64,000 bases of DNA from Flavipsychrobacter stenotrophus (GTDB lineage Bacteria; Bacteroidota; Bacteroidia; Chitinophagales; Chitinophagaceae). The notes below the pieces were generated by a model that was given only the letters and a program-made list of their open reading frames with translations, did no database searches and had not been told where the DNA came from. Location of the stretch: positions 1,054,001-1,118,000 of the forward strand of contig NZ_PPSL01000002.1 in assembly GCF_002954265.1 (NCBI RefSeq), given 5' to 3'. Below are positions 30,751 through 41,868 of the stretch, piece by piece (positions within the stretch are counted from its first letter, which is position 1; every line of letters begins with the position of its first letter). The position numbers were made by a program, and so were the translations under genes.

Positions 30751-33129
30751 TTATGCTTTGTTGGTTCTTTTTGTTGGGGTTGGTTTGGTGGCTTTTGCAG
30801 GTGGCAGGCTTACCGGCCTGTTTTGCTGCTCTTCGCCTTCTCTGTGCAATATCTGGCCACCATTCTGTGGTGGTGTTGTTGGTTTTGCAGCAGGCTTTGG
30901 CGGTTCCGGCTTGGTTACTACGGTTGCAGGCTTTGCGGCCGCAGGCTTGGTTGTTGTTACAGTTGTTGTTTTTGTTACCGTCTTAGTTACAGTAGGTTTG
31001 GTTGTAGTCTTGGTGGTTGTGTTGGCTACTGTTACTGTAGTGGTTGCTGTTGCAGGTTTCTTTGCCTTCATCGGCTTCCTTTTTACAGGCAGTTTTTCCA
31101 ATACTATAATCCCCCTATTGAAGTCGGCACCTGCGTTCATTATCTTCCTGAACTCACCATAGTCTCTTACAGAGTAGTGGGTTTTAGGATAAGACTCATC
31201 TATGCTTATTACCATTTTATTGCCTTTCAGGGTCCAGTTAGAGCGGAAGTAGGCAATGGTGTTGCCATTGTCTCTATCGGTCTGCTCTACGTTAAGGGTC
31301 ATGTTTTCTACGTCTACTACCTTGTATCCTTCAGGAATGTTTACATTGATGGTGTAGGAATTGGAAAACGCATATTCAAGGTCAACAGGTAGTACTCTGT
31401 CTTTTTCGTCATACAGGTGTGGCTGGCTGCCTATGGCATTACCGGCATTAATGATATACCTGTTACCGGCCTTTTCTATCATATCCGGCACTCTTACTAT
31501 TGCGTTTATGATCAGCGGCTTGTTCTCATAAACAGTACTGAAAGATTCATTGGATGTTGAATACCTGATAAGGTCTTCCTGGCGTTCTGCTATTTTAACC
31601 TCATCTTTTATCAGCTCCTTTATTTTTTCCTTCGGTGTTTTAGCCAGCTCCAGGCGCAGATCAGCGGCATTGTAACCGGTATAAACGCAAGTGACATCGG
31701 CACTGGTATTCATATCAGGGTTAATGCTGATCTCCGTAGTCATTTTAAAAGTAGTAGCATGCGTTTCGCGCGGTGCTATAGTTCTTTGTATCGCATCTGC
31801 AGCGGCCACATCACCACCAACTACATATCCCTGTTCGGGGTTGGTCTTTGTGAATATACCTTTATTGTTGATCATGGTATAAGGCAATTCAGGATACCTG
31901 TAGTATTGCTCGGTTGGTGCCAGGTAAGCATCAAAATCGGGGAAGTAAAAAATATAATCATCAAGCGGCGCCCAGTTAATGAACTGCTTATCCATCAGGT
32001 GTTCTCTACGATCAGATACCTTACCCAGTTCATGATTGATACCGGATACCCTGAAGCACATTGCGAATAACCTTACAATACCCGCATCTGTGGCTGATTT
32101 CTTAGCAAGAACGGTATCGAGGTTATCGCCTTCTCTTGGAGACAGCTCCCAATATTGCATGATATTGGTCTTGATGCCGTCTTCGATCATCTTTATCTTC
32201 TTCTCATCACTTTCAGTTCCTCTGATCCCTACTGTATTAGTAAGGAACCTGTTTACCGCCAGTCTTTCAGATTCTTTAAGACCCACCTGGTCCATGCGGA
32301 TGTTCTTCCTGTTAGGGAGCATCCTGTCTACCATGTTCTTGTCATAAAAGCGGGTGTAGAGGTTCTGCGCCAGCTTATCGTAAGTATACTGTTCTCCACG
32401 CTGGTAACCACCACGGCTTACATAATGGTCTATACCATATTCCAGACGCATGGTGTACAGATCATAAAAACTGTACGGCTGCCTTTCCAATGCCGGTATA
32501 TCTGCCTGGTAGATCTTTATCTGTTTGTGATTGCCTACCATTTCTTCATGACCCGATGGGAAACCGTGGTATCCCTTGGTGTTGAAGGTCATTTCTTTAG
32601 GATAGTTCAGTTCGAAGAACGTATTCAACACAGGAATTGTGTACTGGAAGTAGATGCTCCCGAAATTAGACGACAGCGCCTTATACTTTACCACCAGCTC
32701 TATCTCCGCATTTTTCTCCATACCATCGAAGGCAAAGAATATGCCACCCGAACCTGCATAAAGCATGTTGTACCGCACATCGCGGGTAGTACCATCGGGC
32801 AAGATCACACGTGCTTTGATAGAATCTATGCGAGACTGATTGCGCTCGTAAGGAACGGTAATGGTATTGAACTGTTCAATACCCTTTCTGTCCAGCACTT
32901 TTACTATACGGTGAATGGTACTGTACATGGTAGTACCCTTACCTTCAAATATATAGTCTCTCTTTTCGCTTTCCAGTATTACTACCGCGTGTTCTTTAAA
33001 GTACTCTACCGGTATAGGGTGCATCTTAGGTTTTGGGTCCCAGTCTGCAAACTTAGGTGGCTGCTCCTGCGCTGTAGCTGCAAAAGAAGCTACCATCAGG
33101 GAAAATATAAATATGGACAGTTTTTTCAT
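30751..33129 (-). CDS. DUF3857 protein with degenerate transglutaminase core and Thr/Lys/Pro-rich tail
   Basis: The 792-residue protein has a signal peptide (MKKLSIFIFSLMVASFAATAQ). A DUF3857 domain follows (about 40-230, with ITVPYERNQSRIDSIKARVILPDGT), then a region aligned with the transglutaminase core of its upstream neighbour. In that region GDCKDMSSLL is replaced by TDAGIVRLFAMC, so the catalytic Cys position holds Ala, and the segment with the catalytic His reads FINWAPLDDY without it. It is probably a non-catalytic homologue. A beta C-terminal domain and a tail of about 105 residues, dominated by Thr, Lys, Pro and Ala (KTTTKPTVTKT-like repeats), complete it. It is the second gene of a two-gene operon, 8 nt after the intact paralogue. 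Probably periplasmic or surface-exposed. Confidence 0.82.
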   Translation of the reverse strand: MKKLSIFIFSLMVASFAATAQEQPPKFADWDPKPKMHPIPVEYFKEHAVVILESEKRDYIFEGKGTTMYSTIHRIVKVLDRKGIEQFNTITVPYERNQSRIDSIKARVILPDGTTRDVRYNMLYAGSGGIFFAFDGMEKNAEIELVVKYKALSSNFGSIYFQYTIPVLNTFFELNYPKEMTFNTKGYHGFPSGHEEMVGNHKQIKIYQADIPALERQPYSFYDLYTMRLEYGIDHYVSRGGYQRGEQYTYDKLAQNLYTRFYDKNMVDRMLPNRKNIRMDQVGLKESERLAVNRFLTNTVGIRGTESDEKKIKMIEDGIKTNIMQYWELSPREGDNLDTVLAKKSATDAGIVRLFAMCFRVSGINHELGKVSDRREHLMDKQFINWAPLDDYIFYFPDFDAYLAPTEQYYRYPELPYTMINNKGIFTKTNPEQGYVVGGDVAAADAIQRTIAPRETHATTFKMTTEISINPDMNTSADVTCVYTGYNAADLRLELAKTPKEKIKELIKDEVKIAERQEDLIRYSTSNESFSTVYENKPLIINAIVRVPDMIEKAGNRYIINAGNAIGSQPHLYDEKDRVLPVDLEYAFSNSYTINVNIPEGYKVVDVENMTLNVEQTDRDNGNTIAYFRSNWTLKGNKMVISIDESYPKTHYSVRDYGEFRKIMNAGADFNRGIIVLEKLPVKRKPMKAKKPATATTTVTVANTTTKTTTKPTVTKTVTKTTTVTTTKPAAAKPATVVTKPEPPKPAAKPTTPPQNGGQILHREGEEQQNRPVSLPPAKATKPTPTKRTNKA

Positions 33130-33137
33130 TTTCGATC

Positions 33138-35132
33138 TTATTTTTTGGCAGTAAGCACTACAGACTCCTTGTATTGATTTTCGAGGGCTACAATAGCTTT
33201 GTTGTTCTCCACAAACATTTTTGGTGAGACCATCATTGTATTGAGCTTGTATTCCTTGGTAAGTATTACGTTCTTTCCGTCGTTCTTATAAGTGATGCTA
33301 TAACTCCATTTATCGTCCAGCTTGCCCGATGCATTTTTAGGCAGGTAGCTAACTTTGTAGTTTTTAGGGATCTCCAATATCACCACTTCCTTCTGGATCT
33401 CTTTATAGTCGTGGTACCAGGCGGCCTTACGATCGGCGGTATCAATGTAATCATCTTCGAAAGTGCGCAGGATGTTCATGTTTACAATCACATCTTTCTT
33501 CAGGTGGTGTATGTAGTTGCCAACTGTAAAATTGCCCGACATGGTAATGTCCTTATTGCCGGCTTCTTTTGTCTTCAGCTTATAATCCTCCAGCAGAAAT
33601 TTATCTGAACCTCTTGCTGCTATTGATCTTACGATCTTTTCTCTTTCTTCTTTGTCTTTGGTATAAGATAATAATGAGTACCCAAGATTCCATGCAGCAT
33701 AGCCTTCCATTTTCATTTTGAACTGGCCTGCAAGGTCGTTTTCATTGATCGCGGAAATGCGGATGAAAGAACTATCGGTAGTTACATTTTTATCGGCATC
33801 TACGGTCGGAATGGTGATGATCTTAAACTGATCTCTGTCTATAGCTATCATTGCTTCCTTACCCTGTATGTCATTACGATTGGCACCGAATGGCAGGTTG
33901 GCATGCGTGCCGTCCATGAACATCCACTCTCCATCCAGGTTCAGCGCGCAGATCATGTGGTTGCTTACATTCGGTATTGGTGTTTCTTCAAAAGTATATG
34001 GCTTTGCTCTTGTACCGATCCATGTAAAGTAGGTCTTCAAGCCCGCCATACGACCCATCTGTACCAACAGGCTACTCATGTCTTTACAGTCGCCATACAT
34101 TTTCTTACAAACAGTATCTGCTTCACGCGGGATCCAGCCACCAAGGCCTATTTCGAAAGCTATGTAGTGCATGTTTTTTTGTACCCACTCATAAAGGTGC
34201 TGCGCTTTCTGGCGATCAGTAATATCACCCATGGTGATCTTGTTCACCAGATTCTTCAGAGTTGTGTCCTGCTTTACGTTCATGTAACCAACGTATTTGA
34301 ACTGGCTGCGGTAAAGATCTGCCGGAGTCTCAAGAATAGTAGAATCTTTGGTGAGACCCGGAAGGCGGAAAGACGAGATATACGGTACTACATGTGGTAT
34401 GTAGTATAATACAGATGGTACATTCTCGAAAGATTTGTAACCCGGAATGTTATCGGCAGTGAACCTGTAGATGGTATTGCCGTTCTTCTCTTCTGTTGTC
34501 TGCTTAATGATACCGGTGTTCTCACCTTTCAATACAAATTTCATATTGACATAGTTAGGAACGACAACCTCAAACTCTGCATGGAGGATGGGATAGTTGT
34601 CTGCCATCAAAAACAATGGCAAGGCGGTGATATCCGGATGGTCCTGAGTTGCGGTAAGGCGGATAACCGACCCTTTGGTCAACCCTGTAAATGAAGTGAT
34701 GTAGTAGGATGCATCAGTGATCTCACCGCCGCCGGCACCCTGCCCGAAGGTAAAGTGCTTGGTCTGCTGACGGTAGTTACCACCCTTTTGAGGCACATAA
34801 GCAACGGCGTCAAGACCTGTCAGTTGATCGAAATAGTTTTCCGCTACGTGATCGTAATGGTCGTTGGTCGCAGAGAGGTCGCCGGTAAGCAAACGCTCAT
34901 TCTTTATTTTGCTGGTAGCTGTAAGTTCGCCGCCTTCATATTTTATCTCCAGCCTTTCGCTGTAGTTGGTAAATACCGCGTTCTCATTTTTGTACTTAGC
35001 CATTACCCGGGTCATTTTGGCCGTGTCGGGCATCTGTGCTTTAGCGGCAACAGAAACGAACAGTAATGCCACGGGTAGCAGAGCGAAACGCCTGGCGATC
35101 GATGGAATATTTTTTACACTTATGCGTGTCAT
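33138..35132 (-). CDS. DUF3857 / transglutaminase-like exported protein
   Basis: The 664-residue protein starts at the ATG at 35132 (a TTG two codons earlier is unlikely) and has a signal peptide ending AKA. The N-terminal DUF3857 domain spans about 45-250. The transglutaminase-like core keeps the Cys-His-Asp triad: Cys in MYGDCKDMSSLLVQMGRMAGL, His in SNHMICALNLDGEWMFMDGT and Asp in the same segment. The C-terminal beta domain contains the DUF2569-like IPKNYKVSYLPKNASGKLDDKWSYSITYKND stretch. Such proteins are common in Bacteroidota and are thought to act on peptides or as proteases/cross-linkers in the periplasm; no substrate is established. It heads the operon with the degenerate paralogue. 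Confidence 0.88.
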   Translation of the reverse strand: MTRISVKNIPSIARRFALLPVALLFVSVAAKAQMPDTAKMTRVMAKYKNENAVFTNYSERLEIKYEGGELTATSKIKNERLLTGDLSATNDHYDHVAENYFDQLTGLDAVAYVPQKGGNYRQQTKHFTFGQGAGGGEITDASYYITSFTGLTKGSVIRLTATQDHPDITALPLFLMADNYPILHAEFEVVVPNYVNMKFVLKGENTGIIKQTTEEKNGNTIYRFTADNIPGYKSFENVPSVLYYIPHVVPYISSFRLPGLTKDSTILETPADLYRSQFKYVGYMNVKQDTTLKNLVNKITMGDITDRQKAQHLYEWVQKNMHYIAFEIGLGGWIPREADTVCKKMYGDCKDMSSLLVQMGRMAGLKTYFTWIGTRAKPYTFEETPIPNVSNHMICALNLDGEWMFMDGTHANLPFGANRNDIQGKEAMIAIDRDQFKIITIPTVDADKNVTTDSSFIRISAINENDLAGQFKMKMEGYAAWNLGYSLLSYTKDKEEREKIVRSIAARGSDKFLLEDYKLKTKEAGNKDITMSGNFTVGNYIHHLKKDVIVNMNILRTFEDDYIDTADRKAAWYHDYKEIQKEVVILEIPKNYKVSYLPKNASGKLDDKWSYSITYKNDGKNVILTKEYKLNTMMVSPKMFVENNKAIVALENQYKESVVLTAKK

Positions 35133-35325
35133 AAACAATCTATTAAAGGGAATAACCGTATAGCCAAAGATCGAAAAAAATGATGGTCCTATAGCTTACA
35201 GCGGAGAAAAATACGACAAATATTTATAGATGCATAATTTTTGCTCTGTTTTGGGTTTTGGGGGTTCACGCAGAGAGCGCAAAGGTGTGCTGAATTTATG
35301 TGACAGGGAAGTCAGACTGCCCCCC

Positions 35326-36381
35326 TCACGCATACTTCTTCCGCCAGATAAAACCATCTAAAACATAATGTGTGGATTGGGGTAGAGACAGCAGGGGCAC
35401 GAGAAGTGCCAGAACAAAATCGCTGCTGATGTGGGGCAGAAATCGGAACAAACCGAAAACCGATTTGTGGTCCTGCCAGATAAAGCCATCCCACAGGCCT
35501 TCTTCAAGGTATGCGAGTAATATCAATGACCCCACAAAAACTGCCAGACCATACCCTTTTACCTTAATGCCCTGCGCAGCCGGTGTTTTTTTCTTTTCCG
35601 TTCTATTCATTTCGGACCAGATCAAGGCCATATAGGGAATGCCATGCGCAACTACATTGAGCAATGTAAAGGCCATATCACCATTAAAATATATGATGCC
35701 GAAATACCATGACAGGTACGTCCCGATGATGACACCATTCTTTGGTATGTTTATTTTTTCGTCTCTTAATAATAATATTCCCTCCTTAACAATATATGCA
35801 CACGCTATCATTAAATATATCACCCCGCTGAACTCCTTAATAAGAGATGAGTTGCCGATAATAAAATCGCCATCTATAAACCAATTAAAATTGCGGCCGG
35901 GGGTGCAATGCCAGTATATAAGCGGGTAAATGGTAGCGCTATAAATGGCCAGGCCATCTATAATTTTTTCCCAATCTGGCTGATCATCTCTGCGTGCATA
36001 CAACCGCATAAATCCATATTGCTGCCTGATGAAATGGAAAACCGCCAGATAAGCCAATACACTCCAAAACAACGACCCGCTCCATATATGCAGTGCAACA
36101 CCTGCTATATAACATACTATTGGTATGAAAATAAACAACCGGCTGTGCCGCCGAAGGCGGTCTTTATCGAGATAGGTATTGTATAGTGTGCTATATACAT
36201 GTGCTACGTCTACAAATAAAACCAGCATTACCCATACCATTACCGGCATATCGCCGCTGTTTTTAAAATGTGCAGGAAGTAATGCTACAACCAACAGTGC
36301 AAGAAAAGGAGGCAGCAAAATAAATGCCACATCATATAGTGGCTTGTTTATCCATGGCTGCGTATAGCTTGTCTTACTCAT
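35326..36381 (-). CDS. polytopic membrane protein, last gene of the SpeD-DUF4178 operon
   Basis: The 351-residue protein has about nine hydrophobic helices and several conserved-looking polar spots inside or between them: VDVAHVYSTLYNTYLDKDR, FHFIRQQYGFMRLYARRDD, NVVAHGIPYMALIW and LPQSTHYVLDGFIWRK. The repeated His residues next to membrane segments (VAHVY, FHFIRQ, VAHGIPY, THYVLDGFIW) suggest a metal- or heme-type site or a fatty-acyl/lipid enzyme, but this is inference only. It begins 4 nt inside the FAD oxidoreductase gene (ATGA overlap), so it is translated together with that operon. I do not recognise a named family. Confidence 0.7.
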   Translation of the reverse strand: MSKTSYTQPWINKPLYDVAFILLPPFLALLVVALLPAHFKNSGDMPVMVWVMLVLFVDVAHVYSTLYNTYLDKDRLRRHSRLFIFIPIVCYIAGVALHIWSGSLFWSVLAYLAVFHFIRQQYGFMRLYARRDDQPDWEKIIDGLAIYSATIYPLIYWHCTPGRNFNWFIDGDFIIGNSSLIKEFSGVIYLMIACAYIVKEGILLLRDEKINIPKNGVIIGTYLSWYFGIIYFNGDMAFTLLNVVAHGIPYMALIWSEMNRTEKKKTPAAQGIKVKGYGLAVFVGSLILLAYLEEGLWDGFIWQDHKSVFGLFRFLPHISSDFVLALLVPLLSLPQSTHYVLDGFIWRKKYA

Positions 36382-38021
36382 ACATTGGCTATTACTTGTT
36401 TGGCGGCTTTGATACCCTGGTAGAATGCCTCTTCAAATATGGAGATACCGCTGAGGTCGGAATGAGCAAAGAAGATCTTGTTACTAATTGGCTGTGCAGC
36501 TAAGGTGCGTGCCCTGCCCCAAATAAAGCCTGGTGAAGGTGCTATCATGCCATGGCCCCACACCCATATGTCTGCAGCCTCTATGCGATCTGTGACGCCG
36601 GGATGTGCATATTCCAATTCGTCTATAAATACTTTAAGCCACTGCTCGTAAGTTTTGTTACGGGCACTTTTTCTTGCCGAATCGGCCGATTCGTAGGAAA
36701 GAGGCAAATAGTGCGAAAGCACGATCTTATTTTTAATACCCAGGTTCTGGTGATTGGCATTTACATAACCAACTGACGCAGCACCATACACTACATTATC
36801 CCAGCATAACGGTGTGCCTTTACCATCGGGCATATTGTTAACTGTGATATTAGCCACTACCCAGGGTGCATATTTAAACTCGATCCTCGGGTTAAAATCA
36901 TCTAATATTCTTTCAACCTTCTTTAGCAACCGAAGATTGATAAATTGCGGTGTCGCCATTATTACCTTTTTGGCACTTATGGTATAGCTCTCTTTCTTCG
37001 CTACATCATAGACCATGACGTTAGTTCGTTCTCCTGCCTCGTCAACCTTACACGCCAGCTGTCCCTTATACATACCAGTGTCAGCTACCTGTTTGCGTAT
37101 CTGCTCCATCAAAAAGCCATTGCCTTCCGGCCAGGTCAATACGCCCGATGAGTTTGTATTTGATGCCCCACCCTTGCGTGATGCAAAGTAGTGCAGCCCC
37201 GCCCATGCTGAGGTGGTTTTCAGTATGCTTCCGTAATCATCTTTGCAGCCATACTCCAGGTACCACAGCAGGTATTTGGATGTGTAGCCTTCCCGTTGCA
37301 GATAATCGTGGAATGATAGTTGGTCCAATTGCCTGTATTGTGCATCGGCCGACGAAGTATCTACGGGTATGGCAAATGCATCTTTACCATCACTGCCAAC
37401 TGCCAACTTATAATCATTGACCGTTTTGAAAAATCTCCTTATCTGTTCTTTCTCTACCACGGGCACGCCCATCTCTGGCACCAGGCCCTCCTGCCAGTAA
37501 CCGTTTATCAGCAACCGCTCTTCAGGATCATGCAGTAAGTGATAGTCGTTATAAACAGGCAGGCCTTTATCGTCATACCCTGTGATGGTGCCTATCTCCT
37601 GTAAGAAATCCAGTATCTCTTTGTTACGCACATCCGGTATTGGCAGGTAATGTGCAGCCCATGGGTAGGCCGATGTAGCATTTTTACCGTGAGTGGAATT
37701 ACCTCCGAAATGGTCGTCCATCTCAATGAGCATAACATTGGTATGCCCTTGTTGCTGCAGCCATCGTTTTGCTGACAATCCGGATATGCCACCGCCTATG
37801 ATCAGTACATCTGTCTCTACCACCCTTACAGGCGCAGGTAGCGCCTCTATATTATGCAGTAAGTGGCCGGTCGAAAAATTAGCACCCACAATGGCGCCCT
37901 TTATATGTGCCAATGGCGGACGAGGGCGGCATGCTGCATACATTCCCGCAAGTAATACAGAAGAACCTGTTATTACCTGTTTAAAAAATGTGCGCCTGCT
38001 GTTGCCTTCGTTAGTGTGCAT
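36378..38021 (-). CDS. Tat-exported FAD-dependent oxidoreductase (amine-oxidase-like)
   Basis: From the ATG at 38021 the protein has 547 residues. It begins with a twin-arginine signal, NSRRTFFKQVITGSSVLLAG, followed by a Cys (about residue 31) that may be a weak lipobox, so the folded FAD enzyme is exported. The dinucleotide-binding motif VLIIGGGISGLSAKRWLQQQG lies near residues 72-92, with the acidic IEMDDHFGGNS end. A C-terminal FAD segment, IFFAHSDLSGISIFEEAFYQGIKAAKQVI, matches NAD(P)/FAD amine-oxidase-like proteins. Its place beside an aminopropyltransferase and a SpeD homologue suggests oxidation of a polyamine or polyamine-modified product. A TTG at 38042 extends the frame by seven residues. 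It overlaps the aminopropyltransferase end by 11 nt and the next gene by 4 nt. Confidence 0.85.
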   Translation of the reverse strand: MHTNEGNSRRTFFKQVITGSSVLLAGMYAACRPRPPLAHIKGAIVGANFSTGHLLHNIEALPAPVRVVETDVLIIGGGISGLSAKRWLQQQGHTNVMLIEMDDHFGGNSTHGKNATSAYPWAAHYLPIPDVRNKEILDFLQEIGTITGYDDKGLPVYNDYHLLHDPEERLLINGYWQEGLVPEMGVPVVEKEQIRRFFKTVNDYKLAVGSDGKDAFAIPVDTSSADAQYRQLDQLSFHDYLQREGYTSKYLLWYLEYGCKDDYGSILKTTSAWAGLHYFASRKGGASNTNSSGVLTWPEGNGFLMEQIRKQVADTGMYKGQLACKVDEAGERTNVMVYDVAKKESYTISAKKVIMATPQFINLRLLKKVERILDDFNPRIEFKYAPWVVANITVNNMPDGKGTPLCWDNVVYGAASVGYVNANHQNLGIKNKIVLSHYLPLSYESADSARKSARNKTYEQWLKVFIDELEYAHPGVTDRIEAADIWVWGHGMIAPSPGFIWGRARTLAAQPISNKIFFAHSDLSGISIFEEAFYQGIKAAKQVIANV

Positions 38022-38994
38022 ATGGCCCCCAGTCTTTTTCAAAGTAGTGCACCAATACCTGGTTATTCAGCTTGTTGATCTCTGTTTCTTCTTCCTGCAT
38101 ATCGGGTGGGAAGAACATCATATCATTAATGGTAGCGGTGTTGATGTAGCGCAATCCGGCAGGCAATTGTCCTTCATTTTTCCAGCTATAGTTCTTTGTA
38201 GCCAGTATATAACCCCACTCACCAAACGATGGCACATATACATGATAGGGTATAGTATGAAAGCCGACTGATGCAACAGTATGATCTATACACCAGAAAG
38301 AACGGCGGCCTATGTAGGGCGATGTAGATTGTACCACCACTACTCCGTTATCTGCCAGCAACCTGTATATCTCTTTGTAGAACGCATTGGTATATAGCTT
38401 ACCAACGGAATAGTTTGAAGGATCGGGGAAATCGATGATGATGACATTGTAACTGCCACTATCATTGCGCACGTAATTGTATGCGTCTGTATTAATGACA
38501 TTTACTCTTGGCGATAGCAGCGATCGCTTATTGAGTTGCAACAGCATTTCATTCTTCTTAAAGATATTGGTCATGCCGGGGTCCAGGTCTACCAACTTTA
38601 TTGATGTGAGCTGAGGGTACTTCAACAGCTCCCTTACTGCCAGTCCGTCGCCACCGCCGAGCACTAACACTCTGTGTGCGTTGGGCTGACCCTGCATGGC
38701 GGGGTGTATTAACGCTTCGTGATAGCGATATTCATCAGCACTGCTAAACTGCAGGTTGCCATTGAGGAACAATCTCAACTCCCTGCTGTTTTTAGTGAGC
38801 ACTATGCGCTGGTACTGCGTAGTCTTGCTGTAGATTACCTTATCCTGAAAGGTCATGCCTTCTGAATAACTCATGATCTTTTCGGCGTACACAAAACCGG
38901 CTATGAAGCCAAGCGTTGTGAGCATCATTATTACTACAAACCTTGTGCGGTAGTTCTTCGTTTCTTTGAATTTATATAGCAACAGAAAAGCCAC
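38011..38994 (-). CDS. C-terminal catalytic part of a broken membrane-anchored aminopropyltransferase
   Basis: This frame (327 residues from an internal GTG at 38994) is the soluble spermidine-synthase-like part. It shows the nucleotide-binding [23 protein letters not shown], the [25 protein letters not shown] segment in the position of the catalytic Asp loop, and a [17 protein letters not shown] end. Directly upstream in this frame, before the GTG, the codons continue to read [16 protein letters not shown], the normal last membrane helix of the family, so the true gene began further up. The start shown is only formal. Ordinary members of this family are about 500 residues with seven N-terminal helices; the N-terminal piece is the next entry. 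It transfers an aminopropyl group from decarboxylated AdoMet, or a related donor, to an amine. Confidence 0.8.
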
Positions 38995-39266
38995 CAGTAT
39001 GTTGAGGAAACCGAAAAATAATGATGTGCGGATGAGACCCAGGTAGGGTATTTAGACAACCACGAACCTATCCCCATGGCAAACAAATAGGTGCCTATGA
39101 TGGTGGAGAACTGTGTAATGGAATCGCCAAGGAGATAGCTGGCCAATGTGCCTGCTATCAACTCATATATTAACCCGCATGTAGCAATAACGAAGACCGA
39201 TAATAACAGAAGTAATTGCGCTCCTTTATGATTGCCATCGCGTTGCTGCGCTTGTGCTTTACTCAT
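38934..39266 (-). pseudogene. N-terminal membrane fragment of the same aminopropyltransferase
   Basis: The fragment (110 residues) begins with a normal start and reads [55 protein letters not shown]. This is the first two membrane helices of the membrane-anchored aminopropyltransferase family. Directly after GSWLSK (near 39051) it slips out of register into a meaningless tail. The matching downstream sequence, PYLGLIRTS, is in another frame from about 39048. About 110-120 residues (helices 3-6) that family members have in between are absent. The gene thus carries an internal deletion plus a frameshift near 39046-39054 and can make only a two-helix peptide and, at best, a separate catalytic piece. 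Confidence 0.8.
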
Positions 39267-39287
39267 TTGTATGTTTGAAGTAACTGG

Positions 39288-39479
39288 TTACTTGTGATAA
39301 TAAAGTCCGTGGCCACCGCTGTGCCTTGCACCCTGCTGCTGGTTTTCTTTCTCTTTATTTATGTTGTCATCGCCATAAATACGCTGTCCATTCATACCCG
39401 AATACGAATAAAATCCGCCTGCGGCCAGCATGCACATGAAGTAGTACTTTATCTTGTTCAATCCTTGTAGTATGCCCAT
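39288..39479 (-). CDS. small membrane protein of the SpeD-DUF4178 operon
   Basis: The 63-residue protein has one hydrophobic stretch (about residues 10-26, KIKYYFMCMLAAGGFYSY) and a polar tail rich in Gln, Gly and His ending in HSGGHGLYYHK. Its ATG overlaps the DUF4178 stop codon as TAATG, so it is translationally coupled, which supports a real gene in spite of its size. It precedes the aminopropyltransferase by 21 nt. No family recognised; the His-rich end might bind metal. Confidence 0.65.
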   Translation of the reverse strand: MGILQGLNKIKYYFMCMLAAGGFYSYSGMNGQRIYGDDNINKEKENQQQGARHSGGHGLYYHK

Positions 39480-40795
39480 TATTCAGTATCGTTATTAGTG
39501 TTATAATCAGCGCCTGTAAACCATCTGCTGCCCTCGAATGATAATTTCCTGATGAGCTGTATCAAAGGGTAAGTGATGATCAACATCAGCATGGTAAAGA
39601 AATTGGAGGTCAGAAAAACATTCTGAAACACAGCAATTGAAAATGATGGTGTTGCCCCATTGGTGATCTTTTCATTGAACGGGTAAATATTGAGATGGTA
39701 GGTTCCGGTAGGTACACCCGAGATAATGGCTTCCTGCCTGTTGTCTCCTTCCGACCAGTTCTCACCACCTTCGTAGCCATGATAAAACTCTATCGTTTTA
39801 TCTACTTCAAATACTTTGCCCGTTTTGTCGTTGATCAATTCTATCTGCAACTCCAGCCAGTCATTATCAATATTTAAACCATCAAGCCTTATGCCCACCG
39901 GCACAGGTCCTTCTATTTTGAATGGTGCTGTGATAATTGGCTTGCAGCTGGTCCATGCACCGGTATCTGCAGTGCAGGTATGAAACTCCTTGTATACTTC
40001 CTTCTCTGTGTGGGTACCGCTAAGAAATAAGTGAAACATGATAAAAGCCGCCAACAATATTCCGGTAAATATCATCAGTGGTTTAAACCGGGGATAAAAA
40101 GTAGCGGGGTTAAACGTGATCGTTCCTCCGCGCGGCGCCAGTTGCTCTTTCTTCAGGTTGGGCAATAACCTCAAAACATCATTAGGTGATCTGTAAATGG
40201 CCTTATACCATTCCGACCTTTCATCGTCATTCTCCCAGATCAATATCATGGGTTTATGTACAAACTCTACTGCAGTGAGTTGTTCATCATCAAGTATATT
40301 CCAGTCAAACTCACCGGTAGCATAAACTATATCGTATTTATAAGACAGATCCTTGCTATAGGTAAGCCTATCGTGCTTCATCTCGCTGCTGTAAACACGT
40401 TCCTTGTCTTTTATCCTTGTTATAAATAACCAATGCCCGTCATACTCAGACATGGTGATGTATTCATTATCGCCTGCTGAAAAAAACAGGTATTCATTCC
40501 AGTAAACAGCAGTATTGGCCTGCTTCTTGAACATGTGCCCCACCAGCTTATACGGCTTGTCATAGAAGGTGGTTTCCAACCCCATCGGCAGGGTATAGAT
40601 CTCCTTATTGTCCGGGCTGAATATTCTTCTTATAAATGGTTCACTATCGGGCCATATTTCGAAAAGTGTAGCACACTGCGGGCAGGCAAATACTTTACTC
40701 TTTGCAAGATCGTAGTAGGTTATAGCACTTGCACAGGTAGGACATGTTACCGTCTTCTGATGCCACGTGGTCGAAGTGATATTAGTGTCTGCCAT
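39479..40795 (-). CDS. zinc-ribbon DUF4178 membrane protein
   Basis: The 438-residue protein has an N-terminal zinc ribbon (Cys18-x2-Cys21 ... Cys38-x2-Cys41). A DUF4178 domain follows (about 65-215, with YKLVGHMFKKQANTAVYWNEYLFFS and DGHWLFITRIKD), then a transmembrane helix at about 240-262, an extracytoplasmic beta domain (about 270-390), and a second helix at about 400-420. Domains of this type occur next to SpeD-like and aminopropyltransferase-like genes in many bacteria. The function is unknown, but a membrane-tethered substrate- or partner-binding role is likely. It starts 1 nt after the SpeD-like gene and shares TAATG with the next gene. Confidence 0.85.
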   Translation of the reverse strand: MADTNITSTTWHQKTVTCPTCASAITYYDLAKSKVFACPQCATLFEIWPDSEPFIRRIFSPDNKEIYTLPMGLETTFYDKPYKLVGHMFKKQANTAVYWNEYLFFSAGDNEYITMSEYDGHWLFITRIKDKERVYSSEMKHDRLTYSKDLSYKYDIVYATGEFDWNILDDEQLTAVEFVHKPMILIWENDDERSEWYKAIYRSPNDVLRLLPNLKKEQLAPRGGTITFNPATFYPRFKPLMIFTGILLAAFIMFHLFLSGTHTEKEVYKEFHTCTADTGAWTSCKPIITAPFKIEGPVPVGIRLDGLNIDNDWLELQIELINDKTGKVFEVDKTIEFYHGYEGGENWSEGDNRQEAIISGVPTGTYHLNIYPFNEKITNGATPSFSIAVFQNVFLTSNFFTMLMLIITYPLIQLIRKLSFEGSRWFTGADYNTNNDTE

Positions 40796-40796
40796 A

Positions 40797-41150
40797 TTAC
40801 CGGGTTATTTCCTGTTTATCGGTTACCGTTGCCTCAAACATCAATATCACCTGGTCGAAAAAGTGTTTTACTCTGTCTGCATTATCGCGTTCAAAGCTGG
40901 ATAGGAATACGTCGAACGTTGCCAACTGATGCTCCGGCCAGGTATGTATAGACACATGCGATTCAGTAAGGCAAACAACCGCTGTGTATCCTGAACCGGG
41001 AAATGTGTGATACACTTCTCCTACTTTCTGTAAAGACAGCTCGGTAATGATCTTGTCGAATATAATCTTGCAAAGGGCAGCGTCAGTAAGCTTCTCCTCG
41101 CTGCAGTTGAATGTAGAGACGATATGCAACCCGGGTTTATAAATATTCAT
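40797..41150 (-). CDS. SpeD-like AdoMet decarboxylase homologue lacking the catalytic Cys
   Basis: This 117-residue protein is a prokaryotic-type S-adenosylmethionine decarboxylase. The self-cleavage site Glu63-Ser64 lies in LTESHVSIHTWPEH, where Ser would become the pyruvoyl group, and the His69 and HTWPE segment are present. The Cys that acts as proton donor (Cys83 in Thermotoga, Cys82 in human enzyme), usually in DVFTCG, is replaced: the segment reads FDVFLSS, with Ser84. It therefore probably self-processes but may decarboxylate a different substrate or with different chemistry. It is the first gene of the six-gene operon running to 35326. No exact -7 box is seen upstream; the 41151-41302 gap is AT-rich. 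Confidence 0.88.
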   Translation of the reverse strand: MNIYKPGLHIVSTFNCSEEKLTDAALCKIIFDKIITELSLQKVGEVYHTFPGSGYTAVVCLTESHVSIHTWPEHQLATFDVFLSSFERDNADRVKHFFDQVILMFEATVTDKQEITR

Positions 41151-41302: not shown

Positions 41303-41521
41303 ATGACTCATAGCCTGCTATATAAGGTTACCGATACACAACTTACCATTACAATACCACCGGCATTTAAAAACAAGCAGGTGCGAGTGACCATTGATGA
41401 TAAGCTGGTGGAAAATGATAAAATTGCATTGATGAAACTTGCTGTTAAAGATCCTTTATTTCTTTCTGACATGAAAGAAGTTAATGATGATTTCGAAGGC
41501 GTAGAGCATGAGACACTATGA
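41303..41521 (+). CDS. antitoxin of a MazF-type pair
   Basis: The 72-residue protein has an N-terminal beta strand pattern (LYKVTDTQLTITIPPAFKNKQVRVTIDD), as in AbrB- or DUF2281-like antitoxins, and an acidic C-terminus that would wrap the toxin. The stop codon overlaps the ATG of the toxin gene by 4 nt (ATGA). The gene is intact although the toxin is interrupted. It sits between the SpeD operon, divergently, and the toxin. Confidence 0.7.
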   Translation: MTHSLLYKVTDTQLTITIPPAFKNKQVRVTIDDKLVENDKIALMKLAVKDPLFLSDMKEVNDDFEGVEHETL

Positions 41522-41868
41522 GTTTTAAGCGCTGGAATATCTATAGAGCCAATCTTGACCCTGTAGTAGGCTCTGAGCAGGGAAAATCAAGACCTGTAAT
41601 AGTTATCAGCGATGATCACATAAACGACCTGCTGAATGTGGTAAATGTATTGCCCCTTACAACACGTAAAGATGGCAGAAATATCTACCCCAATGAAGCA
41701 CTACTTGAAGTAGCGGATGGAGGGCTCCCAAATGACTCAGTAGTTTTGTGCTACCAAATATGAACACTTGATAAGCGAAGGCTTTCTTTACAACTCGGGG
41801 AAATAAAAAGCGAAGAAAAACAAAACGAGATACTAATTGCGCTACGTTTTCAATTAGGCATTCAGTAG
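41518..41868 (+). pseudogene. MazF/PemK-family toxin interrupted by an in-frame TGA
   Basis: The frame starts MSFKRWNIYRANLDPVVGSEQGKSRPVIVISDD, the typical MazF start with the G-x-E-Q-x-G-x-x-R-P-x-x-V motif. It reads on through NVVNVLPLTTRKD and ends SVVLCYQI at a TGA (41761-41763). Directly after, in the same frame, the codons continue TLDKRRLSLQLGEIKSEEKQNEI... and stop at 41866-41868, giving 116 codons overall, a normal MazF length. Family members have an Arg in Q-I-R-T-L-D at that spot; a CGA to TGA change explains it. MazF cleaves mRNA at specific short sequences. The truncated 81-residue product lacks the C-terminal helix and is probably inactive. Confidence 0.85.

What the first reader, a model, noticed from the sequence alone, without database searches (positions are those of the whole stretch)
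35326..41150. Six-gene SpeD-like / DUF4178 / aminopropyltransferase / Tat-FAD oxidoreductase / membrane protein operon
Seen: six minus-strand frames packed with gaps of 1-21 nt or overlaps (TAATG, 11 nt, ATGA) encode a SpeD-like enzyme, a zinc-ribbon DUF4178 membrane protein, a small membrane protein, a membrane-anchored aminopropyltransferase, a Tat-exported FAD oxidoreductase and a nine-helix protein rich in membrane-edge His. Known: SpeD and aminopropyltransferases make polyamines in the cytoplasm, and DUF4178 proteins are uncharacterised neighbours of such genes. Inference: the set makes and then oxidises a polyamine-like modification at or across the inner membrane, perhaps on a lipid or envelope protein. 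The Tat export of the oxidase and the membrane anchor of the transferase set it apart from ordinary spermidine synthesis. No DUF350 gene, a common companion, is present here.
Basis: partly seen in the sequence, partly recalled or inferred. Interest (0 to 1): 0.75.

Follow-up and report, generated by a model that had tools for sequence, protein, structure and literature searches.

The report
Membrane aminopropyl operon with His-Lys peptide
A conserved bacterial gene set seems to attach a polyamine-like group to something in the cell envelope, and each set also encodes a tiny membrane peptide that nearly always ends in histidine-lysine, which is a good candidate for what gets modified.

Summary
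The operon is real, with one correction: its aminopropyltransferase (APT) gene is broken here. About 289 nt are missing out of frame, a true deletion or an assembly error; relatives are intact.

The cluster is conserved in Bacteroidota, and the APT-FAD pair recurs in Novosphingobium, Burkholderia and Gemmatirosa. The SpeD/APT/DUF350/DUF4178 core is published, and such APT fusions are reported not to make spermidine.

Not found in print by my limited searches:
(1) The "small membrane protein" is a single-pass peptide. Its sequence drifts, yet it ends in His-Lys in 44 of 45 loci of this APT clade (Gemmatirosa: HGK). In one genome it is fused to the DUF4178 protein.
(2) The FAD enzyme is a Tat lipoprotein and an APT-linked add-on; loci without it keep the peptide.
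(3) Charge patterns place the APT catalytic domain, peptide tail and FAD enzyme on the periplasmic face.

Best reading: the APT aminopropylates the peptide's C-terminal lysine, hypusine-like, and the FAD enzyme oxidises or removes the group. The chemistry is inferred. TM9's fold and role stay unknown.

The parts
40797..41150 (-). SpeD-like (class 1b AdoMet decarboxylase family), 117 aa; keeps ESH..IHTWPE, but Ser84 stands where T. maritima has the catalytic Cys83
   Evidence: PF02675 2e-22; TIGR03330 69.6 bits, under its cut-off of 75.65; alignments; role of Cys83 from PMC10407285 passage
39479..40795 (-). Zinc-ribbon membrane protein at the DUF4178 position, 438 aa, two TM segments (about 240-258, 394-412) with a 135-aa loop between them
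   Evidence: zinc-ribbon matches only for this copy; orthologues match PF13785 above cut-off; hydropathy
39288..39479 (-). 63-aa single-pass peptide ending ...GLYYHK: candidate substrate tail
   Evidence: C-terminal HK in 44 of 45 loci; sequence; in this copy the hydrophobic stretch is weak, 0.85
38934..39266 (-). Aminopropyltransferase, N-terminal piece (TM1-TM2), then out of frame
   Evidence: NF002956 93.5 bits, profile 7-77; tblastn residues 1-73
38995..39047 (-). Junction of the missing stretch: 53 nt here against 342 nt in relatives
38011..38994 (-). Aminopropyltransferase, C-terminal piece (last TM segments and catalytic domain with GGGDG)
   Evidence: PF01564 4.8e-36; NF002956 420 bits, profile 192-519; alignment
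36378..38042 (-). FAD oxidoreductase, Tat-type signal and lipobox-type Cys (ATG start probably at 38021)
   Evidence: PF13450, PF01266 and PF00890 over cut-off, PF01593 just over; twin Arg and Cys conserved
35326..36381 (-). TM9: polytopic protein with invariant H61, H116, H158, H246, H338; family without a Pfam or PDB match
   Evidence: alignment A3; no families of note, no PDB sequence match; model and fold searches

Best explanation
This is the Bacteroidota form of a membrane aminopropyl-transfer system that modifies a protein tail at the periplasmic face. Proposed mechanism: (1) SpeD makes decarboxylated AdoMet (family inference). (2) The 7TM aminopropyltransferase, with its catalytic domain predicted outside, transfers the aminopropyl group to the small membrane peptide encoded beside it, most likely to the side chain of its C-terminal Lys, which resembles putrescine; this would give aminopropyl-lysine, a hypusine-like residue. 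(3) The peptide works with the DUF4178 protein and, where present, DUF350. (4) The Tat-exported FAD lipoprotein, present in most loci of the clade, oxidises or removes the group. (5) TM9 is a further Bacteroidota accessory, perhaps a redox or transport partner of the FAD enzyme. Shown: linkage, the conserved His-Lys end, the peptide/DUF4178 fusion, the Tat and Cys signals. Inferred: sidedness, substrate and chemistry. In the window's genome the transferase is broken, so the pathway is probably off there unless the deletion is an assembly error.
For: C-terminal HK in 44 of 45 loci of the APT clade while the rest of the peptide diverges. Control: of 1,892 small TM-bearing ORFs in 65 loci, 45 end HK, and only 3 of those are not the operon peptide. 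Tail fused to the DUF4178 protein in L160, still ending SHK. L041 has two DUF4178-peptide-DUF350 cassettes and one APT. Peptide kept in L117 and L118, which have no FAD or TM9. APT loops: K+R 2.30/2.73/3.30/3.05 against 0.18/0.77/0.80 over 44 APTs; a paper also calls the APT membrane part 7TM (passage). Peptide N-flank more positive than C-flank in 25 of 29 chosen peptides. FAD: 42 RR and 3 RK in 45 homologues, Cys in 43. GGGDG kept. Membrane-APT fusions of bacteria reported uninvolved in spermidine/spermine synthesis (passage). Precedent for a 7TM plus spermidine-synthase-like enzyme acting on a protein end: fungal NHMT (passages).
Against: No modification was observed. SpeD has Ser for the catalytic Cys in this clade and misses the AdoMetDC equivalog cut-off. 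No route is known for decarboxylated AdoMet to the periplasm. Single-sequence hydropathy gives 5-7 TM segments, not always 7; TM2 is weak and TM5/TM6 are 2 residues apart. HK is limited to this APT clade: none of 13 loci with distant APTs has it in the operon, though 3 have a peptide ending in Lys. The NHMT paper calls its 7TM sequence unique to filamentous fungi, and NHMT lacks the acid that these APTs keep, so the precedent may be only an analogy. No structure of APT or FAD could be made. The window's own peptide has a weak TM score and its APT is broken.
Confidence: 0.4

Rival explanations
1. The APT aminopropylates a membrane lipid or another envelope molecule. The HK peptide, DUF4178 and DUF350 are scaffold or regulatory subunits, and the HK end is used for docking or metal binding.
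For: Partners in related clusters are membrane-remodelling proteins: SPFH, TelA-like, PspA in print (passage). Conserved C-terminal ends can be docking signals (general knowledge).
Against: It gives no reason for an end that is nearly invariant while the rest of the peptide diverges. No lipid enzyme recurs in the listed operon genes.
Confidence: 0.27
2. Plain polyamine synthesis by a membrane-anchored spermidine synthase, with a periplasmic polyamine oxidase.
For: SpeD and APT catalytic motifs are kept. Full-length relatives pass the NCBIfam polyamine aminopropyltransferase cut-off (650 and 667 bits against 472). The genome has no nspC.
Against: A paper says such fusions were experimentally uninvolved in spermidine and spermine synthesis (passage). 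The genome has a deoxyhypusine/homospermidine-synthase-like gene as another triamine route (under the equivalog cut-offs). It does not explain the peptide.
Confidence: 0.13
3. The tail is the substrate of the FAD enzyme alone (for example lysine oxidation), and the aminopropyl branch acts on something else.
For: The FAD protein is a lipoprotein by signal and the tail is predicted periplasmic, so they share a compartment whatever the side of the APT domain.
Against: The HK tail is kept in L117 and L118, which lack FAD and TM9, so FAD is not what preserves it.
Confidence: 0.08

Closest known systems
SpeD / membrane-fused spermidine synthase-like / DUF350 clusters (Li et al. 2019, Biochem J 476:2579; not held, known through citing papers and recall)
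   Same: AdoMetDC gene next to a TM-spermidine synthase-like fusion; DUF350 in most relatives; cited as uninvolved in spermidine or spermine synthesis (passage in PMC12803844)
   Different: Here also the HK peptide, a Tat FAD lipoprotein and TM9; DUF350 absent from the window's genome. Whether Li et al. mention these genes could not be checked
PspA-CesT/Tir operon group with 7TM-spermine synthase, DUF350 and DUF4178 (PMC11237479, passages)
   Same: 7TM-APT, DUF350, DUF4178; the authors suggest aminopropylation of other substrates
   Different: No PspA or CesT/Tir gene seen in these loci; no FAD or peptide in the passages read. A polyamine oxidase is named there for a different, ATP-grasp operon variant
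Fungal NHMT, 7TM N-terminal-histidine methyltransferase (PMC10349129, passages)
   Same: Works-like analogy: 7TM plus spermidine-synthase-like domain that modifies a protein end in the secretory pathway
   Different: Methylates, uses AdoMet, lacks the acid of GxG(D/E)G; these APTs keep GGGDG. Homology of the two 7TM parts was not tested here
Deoxyhypusine synthesis (recalled)
   Same: What it may work like: a polyamine-derived group placed on a lysine, then an oxidative step
   Different: Aminobutyl taken from spermidine, internal lysine, cytosolic, unrelated enzymes. Not claimed as a member
Tat-exported or periplasmic flavin amine oxidases, e.g. Pseudomonas SpdH (PDB 7d9f)
   Same: Profile search aligns the N-terminal region and Rossmann motif (1.5e-5)
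   Different: The match covers residues 14-119 only; substrate class is not established

Membership tests
SpeD / membrane-APT fusion / DUF350 cluster (Li 2019 type) | AdoMetDC-family gene beside a TM-spermidine synthase-like fusion | tested here: met
   the fusion is intact in relatives and broken in the window
SpeD / membrane-APT fusion / DUF350 cluster (Li 2019 type) | DUF350 companion | tested here: not met
   absent in the window and its whole genome; present in many relatives. A frequent companion, not a strict requirement
SpeD / membrane-APT fusion / DUF350 cluster (Li 2019 type) | No role in spermidine synthesis | not testable with these tools
   taken from a citing paper
NCBIfam NF002956 polyamine aminopropyltransferase | Score over 472 bits | tested here: not met
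   window pieces 93.5 and 420 bits; intact relatives L025 667 and L050 650 bits pass
Canonical AdoMet decarboxylase (TIGR03330) | Score over 75.65 bits | tested here: not met
   69.6 bits; L050 SpeD passes with 98.9
Canonical AdoMet decarboxylase (TIGR03330) | Catalytic Ser63, His68, Cys83 (T. maritima numbers) | tested here: not met
   Ser and His kept, Cys replaced by Ser in 10 of 10 aligned close copies; Cys kept in L117, L160, L050, L056
DUF4178 (PF13785) | Match over the Pfam cut-off | tested here: not met
   no match for the window copy; L030, L045, L041 and L160 positional orthologues pass
Tat lipoprotein | Twin-Arg motif, hydrophobic stretch, lipobox Cys | tested here: met
   window SRRTFF...AAC; 42 RR and 3 RK, Cys in 43 of 45 homologues; export itself not tested
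Flavin amine oxidase superfamily (PF01593) | Match over the Pfam cut-off | tested here: met
   19.9 bits against 19.8, marginal; activity not testable
NHMT-type terminal-His methyltransferase | No acid in GxG(D/E)G | tested here: not met
   GGGDG in all 7 rows of A4 and all 12 of A6
Brp/Blh dioxygenase (for TM9) | Profile similarity | tested here: inconclusive
   hhalign probability 0.2, 0.3 and 11.6%; controls 0.3-1.1%
PSP operons | PspA and CesT/Tir genes in the operon | not tested
   not searched by profile; no such gene named in the annotated loci seen

The most novel reading that the evidence does not exclude
A hypusine-like post-translational modification at the bacterial envelope: a 7TM aminopropyltransferase with an exoplasmic catalytic domain uses decarboxylated AdoMet to make aminopropyl-lysine at the free C-terminus of a dedicated membrane peptide (or of the DUF4178 protein in the fused form), and a Tat-exported flavin lipoprotein edits it. 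This would be the missing substrate of the published polyamine-independent AdoMetDC systems.
Probability: 0.3. Interest if true: 0.9.

Novelty: new variant of a known kind. Interest (0 to 1): 0.7.

Why it matters
The core gene set is widespread (recalled from the 2019 abstract), and its enzyme is thought to aminopropylate something other than putrescine (recalled abstract; PMC11237479 speaks of aminopropylation of other substrates). What that is was left open as far as I could see. A co-encoded peptide with a nearly invariant C-terminal His-Lys gives a concrete, small candidate ready for mass spectrometry, and the exported flavin enzyme and charge pattern say in which compartment to look. If right, it adds a lysine modification made outside the cytoplasm; if wrong, one experiment removes the leading candidate.

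Tried and rejected

Defence system: PADLOC gave one match, through the spermidine-synthase part of the APT. Viral: no relative of the FAD protein in viral contigs. RNA: only a tRNA in the window. Promoter-like sites were no more than in shuffles (12 against 16.7); terminator-like sites were more (14 against 5.2), scattered inside genes; neither was used.

FAD and APT structures: the FAD job was interrupted and the predictor was then closed, so the 7TM claim rests on hydropathy and on a published description. Whole-genome scans in other phyla were not possible; cross-phylum evidence comes from plasmid records.

Rows dropped before counts: L044 (contig starts inside FAD, no APT) is left out of the HK count. 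L022 and L023 (22-27% FAD homologues, no APT in about 1.5 kb) are left out of the strong FAD count. L003 has FAD and TM9 but no APT in the 1.1 kb to its contig end, so APT adjacency in L001-L021 is 20 of 21, one of them the window itself. The tree and the charge count used the 44 APTs that passed a motif and length filter, which leaves out most distant fusions. One search used 29 chosen peptides, not all. The first HK listing selected on the ending; searches did not, and one search gives the background.
Full report
OBSERVATION. SpeD-like, zinc-ribbon membrane protein, 63-aa membrane protein, aminopropyltransferase (APT), FAD oxidoreductase and a polytopic membrane protein follow each other with gaps of 1-21 nt or short overlaps. 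Family searches back SpeD (PF02675), APT (PF01564) and the FAD protein (PF13450, PF01266, PF00890, and PF01593 just over its cut-off). Corrections: the APT gene is in two pieces in different frames, and the window's zinc-ribbon protein does not itself match DUF4178, although positional orthologues do.

BROKEN TRANSFERASE. In 21 related loci the APT is one ORF of 497-538 aa. Between two aligned marker points relatives have 342 nt and the window 53 nt, so about 289 nt are missing, out of frame. The loss corresponds to residues about 74-168 of the L025 protein: TM3, TM4 and most of TM5. It may be a real deletion or an assembly error. In this genome the only SpeD match is the one here. Besides this APT there are two weak spermidine-synthase-family matches just over the Pfam cut-off (28.5 and 25.9 bits against 22.9), which I did not examine.

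LINKAGE IN BACTEROIDOTA. A genome-contig scan with the FAD protein gave 22 loci, all titled or classed as Bacteroidota. APT lies beside FAD in 21; the other, L044, is cut by its contig end. The usual order is SpeD - zinc-ribbon/DUF4178 - small peptide - (DUF350) - APT - FAD - (TM9). SpeD was matched in 20 of 22 and TM9 in 14 of 22; L028 has a 4.3-kb insertion before APT. In a 392-genome sample of the phylum (same handles in three searches) the APT is in 28, the FAD family strongly in 14 and TM9 strongly in 11. All 14 FAD genomes are among the 28 (hypergeometric 2e-18, which ignores relatedness) and all 11 TM9 genomes among the 14. Two more FAD matches are weak (22-27%) and unlinked within about 1.5 kb. 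Among 59 relatives only 8 have FAD.

BEYOND BACTEROIDOTA. On plasmid records the FAD family occurs in 7 records (3 Novosphingobium, 3 Burkholderia, 1 Gemmatirosa), all of them among the 13 records with an APT; the thresholds differed. In the four whose surroundings I read, APT is beside FAD, with SPFH, two DUF4178 domains (one 505-aa ORF in Burkholderia) and SpeD nearby. SpeD follows FAD in Novosphingobium. TM9 has no match on plasmids. L117 and L118 have SpeD, DUF4178, peptide, DUF350 and APT without FAD or TM9. So SpeD-DUF4178-peptide-APT, usually with DUF350, is the core, FAD a common addition, and TM9 a Bacteroidota addition.

THE SMALL PEPTIDE. The window's 63-aa protein, its homologues in 19 Bacteroidota loci found by tblastn, and the annotated Novosphingobium gene with its counterpart in a second species were aligned: 22 of 22 end His-Lys while the rest diverges. 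I then listed, without regard to the ending, ORFs in the gap between the DUF4178 stop and DUF350/APT. The TM-bearing peptide ending HK recurs there, and frames were read by eye where no start fitted. Over the window and 44 loci of this APT clade (L024-L043, L045, L050-L053, L117, L118, L151-L167), 44 of 45 end HK; Gemmatirosa (L052) ends HGK. One of the 44 is L160, where a third TM segment and the tail are fused to the end of the DUF4178 protein and still end SHK. In Burkholderia (L051) the peptide lies in the divergent DUF4178/SpeD unit. L041 has two DUF4178-peptide-DUF350 cassettes and one APT, both peptides ending YHK. Background: of 1,892 small TM-bearing ORFs in 65 loci, 45 end HK. Of these, 42 are the operon peptide (41 loci) and 3 are not (L116, a TM9 fragment; L119; L123, overlapping a longer ORF) (positions). 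Among 13 loci with more distant APTs none has an HK peptide in the operon. L057, L058 and L120 have a peptide ending in Lys there (SGK, RVK, GGK); in the other ten I found none.

COMPARTMENT. Averaged over 44 APTs there are seven hydropathy peaks before the catalytic domain. K+R per loop is 2.30, 2.73, 3.30, 3.05 for loops 0, 2, 4, 6 and 0.18, 0.77, 0.80 for loops 1, 3, 5. By the positive-inside rule the catalytic domain is then outside. Single sequences gave 5 to 7 segments; one paper describes the part as 7TM (passage). Among 29 chosen peptides the N-flank is more positive than the C-flank in 25, equal in 3 and less in 1, so the tail is probably outside; the window's own peptide has a weak hydrophobic stretch. 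The FAD protein has a twin-Arg signal and a lipobox-type Cys: of 45 distinct homologues, 42 RR and 3 RK, with Cys in 44 by script and in 43 by my reading, since in L012 the Cys is misplaced and L051 has none. All three would share the periplasmic face. These are sequence inferences.

CHEMISTRY. The APT keeps GGGDG, DxxDP and YHE as in E. coli SpeE. A paper on the fungal 7TM enzyme NHMT says spermidine synthases need the acid of GxG(D/E)G to bind decarboxylated AdoMet, which NHMT lacks (passages). NHMT methylates the N-terminal His of secreted proteins and resides in the ER. Another paper states that the only homologues outside fungi of a fungal membrane protein-APT-like fusion are bacterial proteins shown to be uninvolved in spermidine or spermine synthesis (passage, citing Li 2019, which is not held). 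That NHMT belongs with those fungal fusions is my inference, and the NHMT paper calls its 7TM sequence unique to filamentous fungi. A lysine side chain offers the same four-carbon amine as putrescine, so a C-terminal Lys could fit such an active site; this is reasoning, not data. The genome has a deoxyhypusine-synthase-family gene (2e-40), best matched by a homospermidine model below its cut-off, and no nspC match.

AGAINST. In the window's SpeD and nine aligned close copies Ser stands at the place of T. maritima Cys83 (read), which a paper lists as essential for self-processing and involved in catalysis (passage). The L117, L160, Novosphingobium and Alteromonas copies keep Cys. No route for decarboxylated AdoMet to the periplasm is known to me. 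HK is limited to this APT clade. On the quick APT tree HK needs one change and FAD two, but only 4 of 44 rows lack FAD and long branches were flagged, so this is weak.

KNOWN AND NEW. The SpeD/TM-APT/DUF350/DUF4178 association is published (PMC11237479 passages; Li 2019 by recall and citation). I saw no mention of the HK peptide, the Tat FAD lipoprotein or TM9 in the passages read or the listings of ten searches of an open-access library. Subscription papers are mostly absent from it, and Li 2019 itself could not be read. I therefore file it as a new variant of a known kind.

Noticed in passing
window 41303-41521 and 41518-41763, + strand: Small two-gene unit upstream, divergent from the operon: a 72-aa protein without a Pfam match and an 81-aa PemK/MazF-like protein that matches only positions 1-78 of the 109-position model, so its C-terminal end looks short.
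   Followed up: no
window 30751-33129 and 33138-35138, - strand: Two neighbouring DUF3857 proteins downstream of the operon, the second also with a transglutaminase-like core.
   Followed up: no
L031-L033, L035, L036, L043 (Larkinella), after FAD: A 155-201 aa gene takes the place of TM9 after FAD; the L031 copy matches SnoaL-like (1.8e-6, just over cut-off).
   Followed up: no
L041 4725-12720: Two DUF4178-HK peptide-DUF350 cassettes in a row with a single APT, FAD and TM9.
   Followed up: partly
L116 (G410 C12 362000-377000): Only a C-terminal fragment of TM9 with stops is left and no other operon gene was matched: a decayed locus.
   Followed up: no
L071-L081: A wider, unnamed family of His-rich membrane proteins (355-441 aa) related to TM9 (hhalign 99.6%), sharing D58, H61, H116, R119, Q120, H246, H338 and D342, in genomes without this operon's TM9.
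   Followed up: partly
L022, L023: Weak FAD homologues (22-27%), also with a twin-Arg signal and Cys, with no APT within about 1.5 kb: perhaps a sister family in another setting.
   Followed up: no
L056 5944-12602 (Alteromonas plasmid): A distant relative cluster, APT-SpeD-hypothetical-TelA-like-DUF4178-hypothetical-DUF350, without FAD and without a small TM ORF ending in Lys that I could find.
   Followed up: partly
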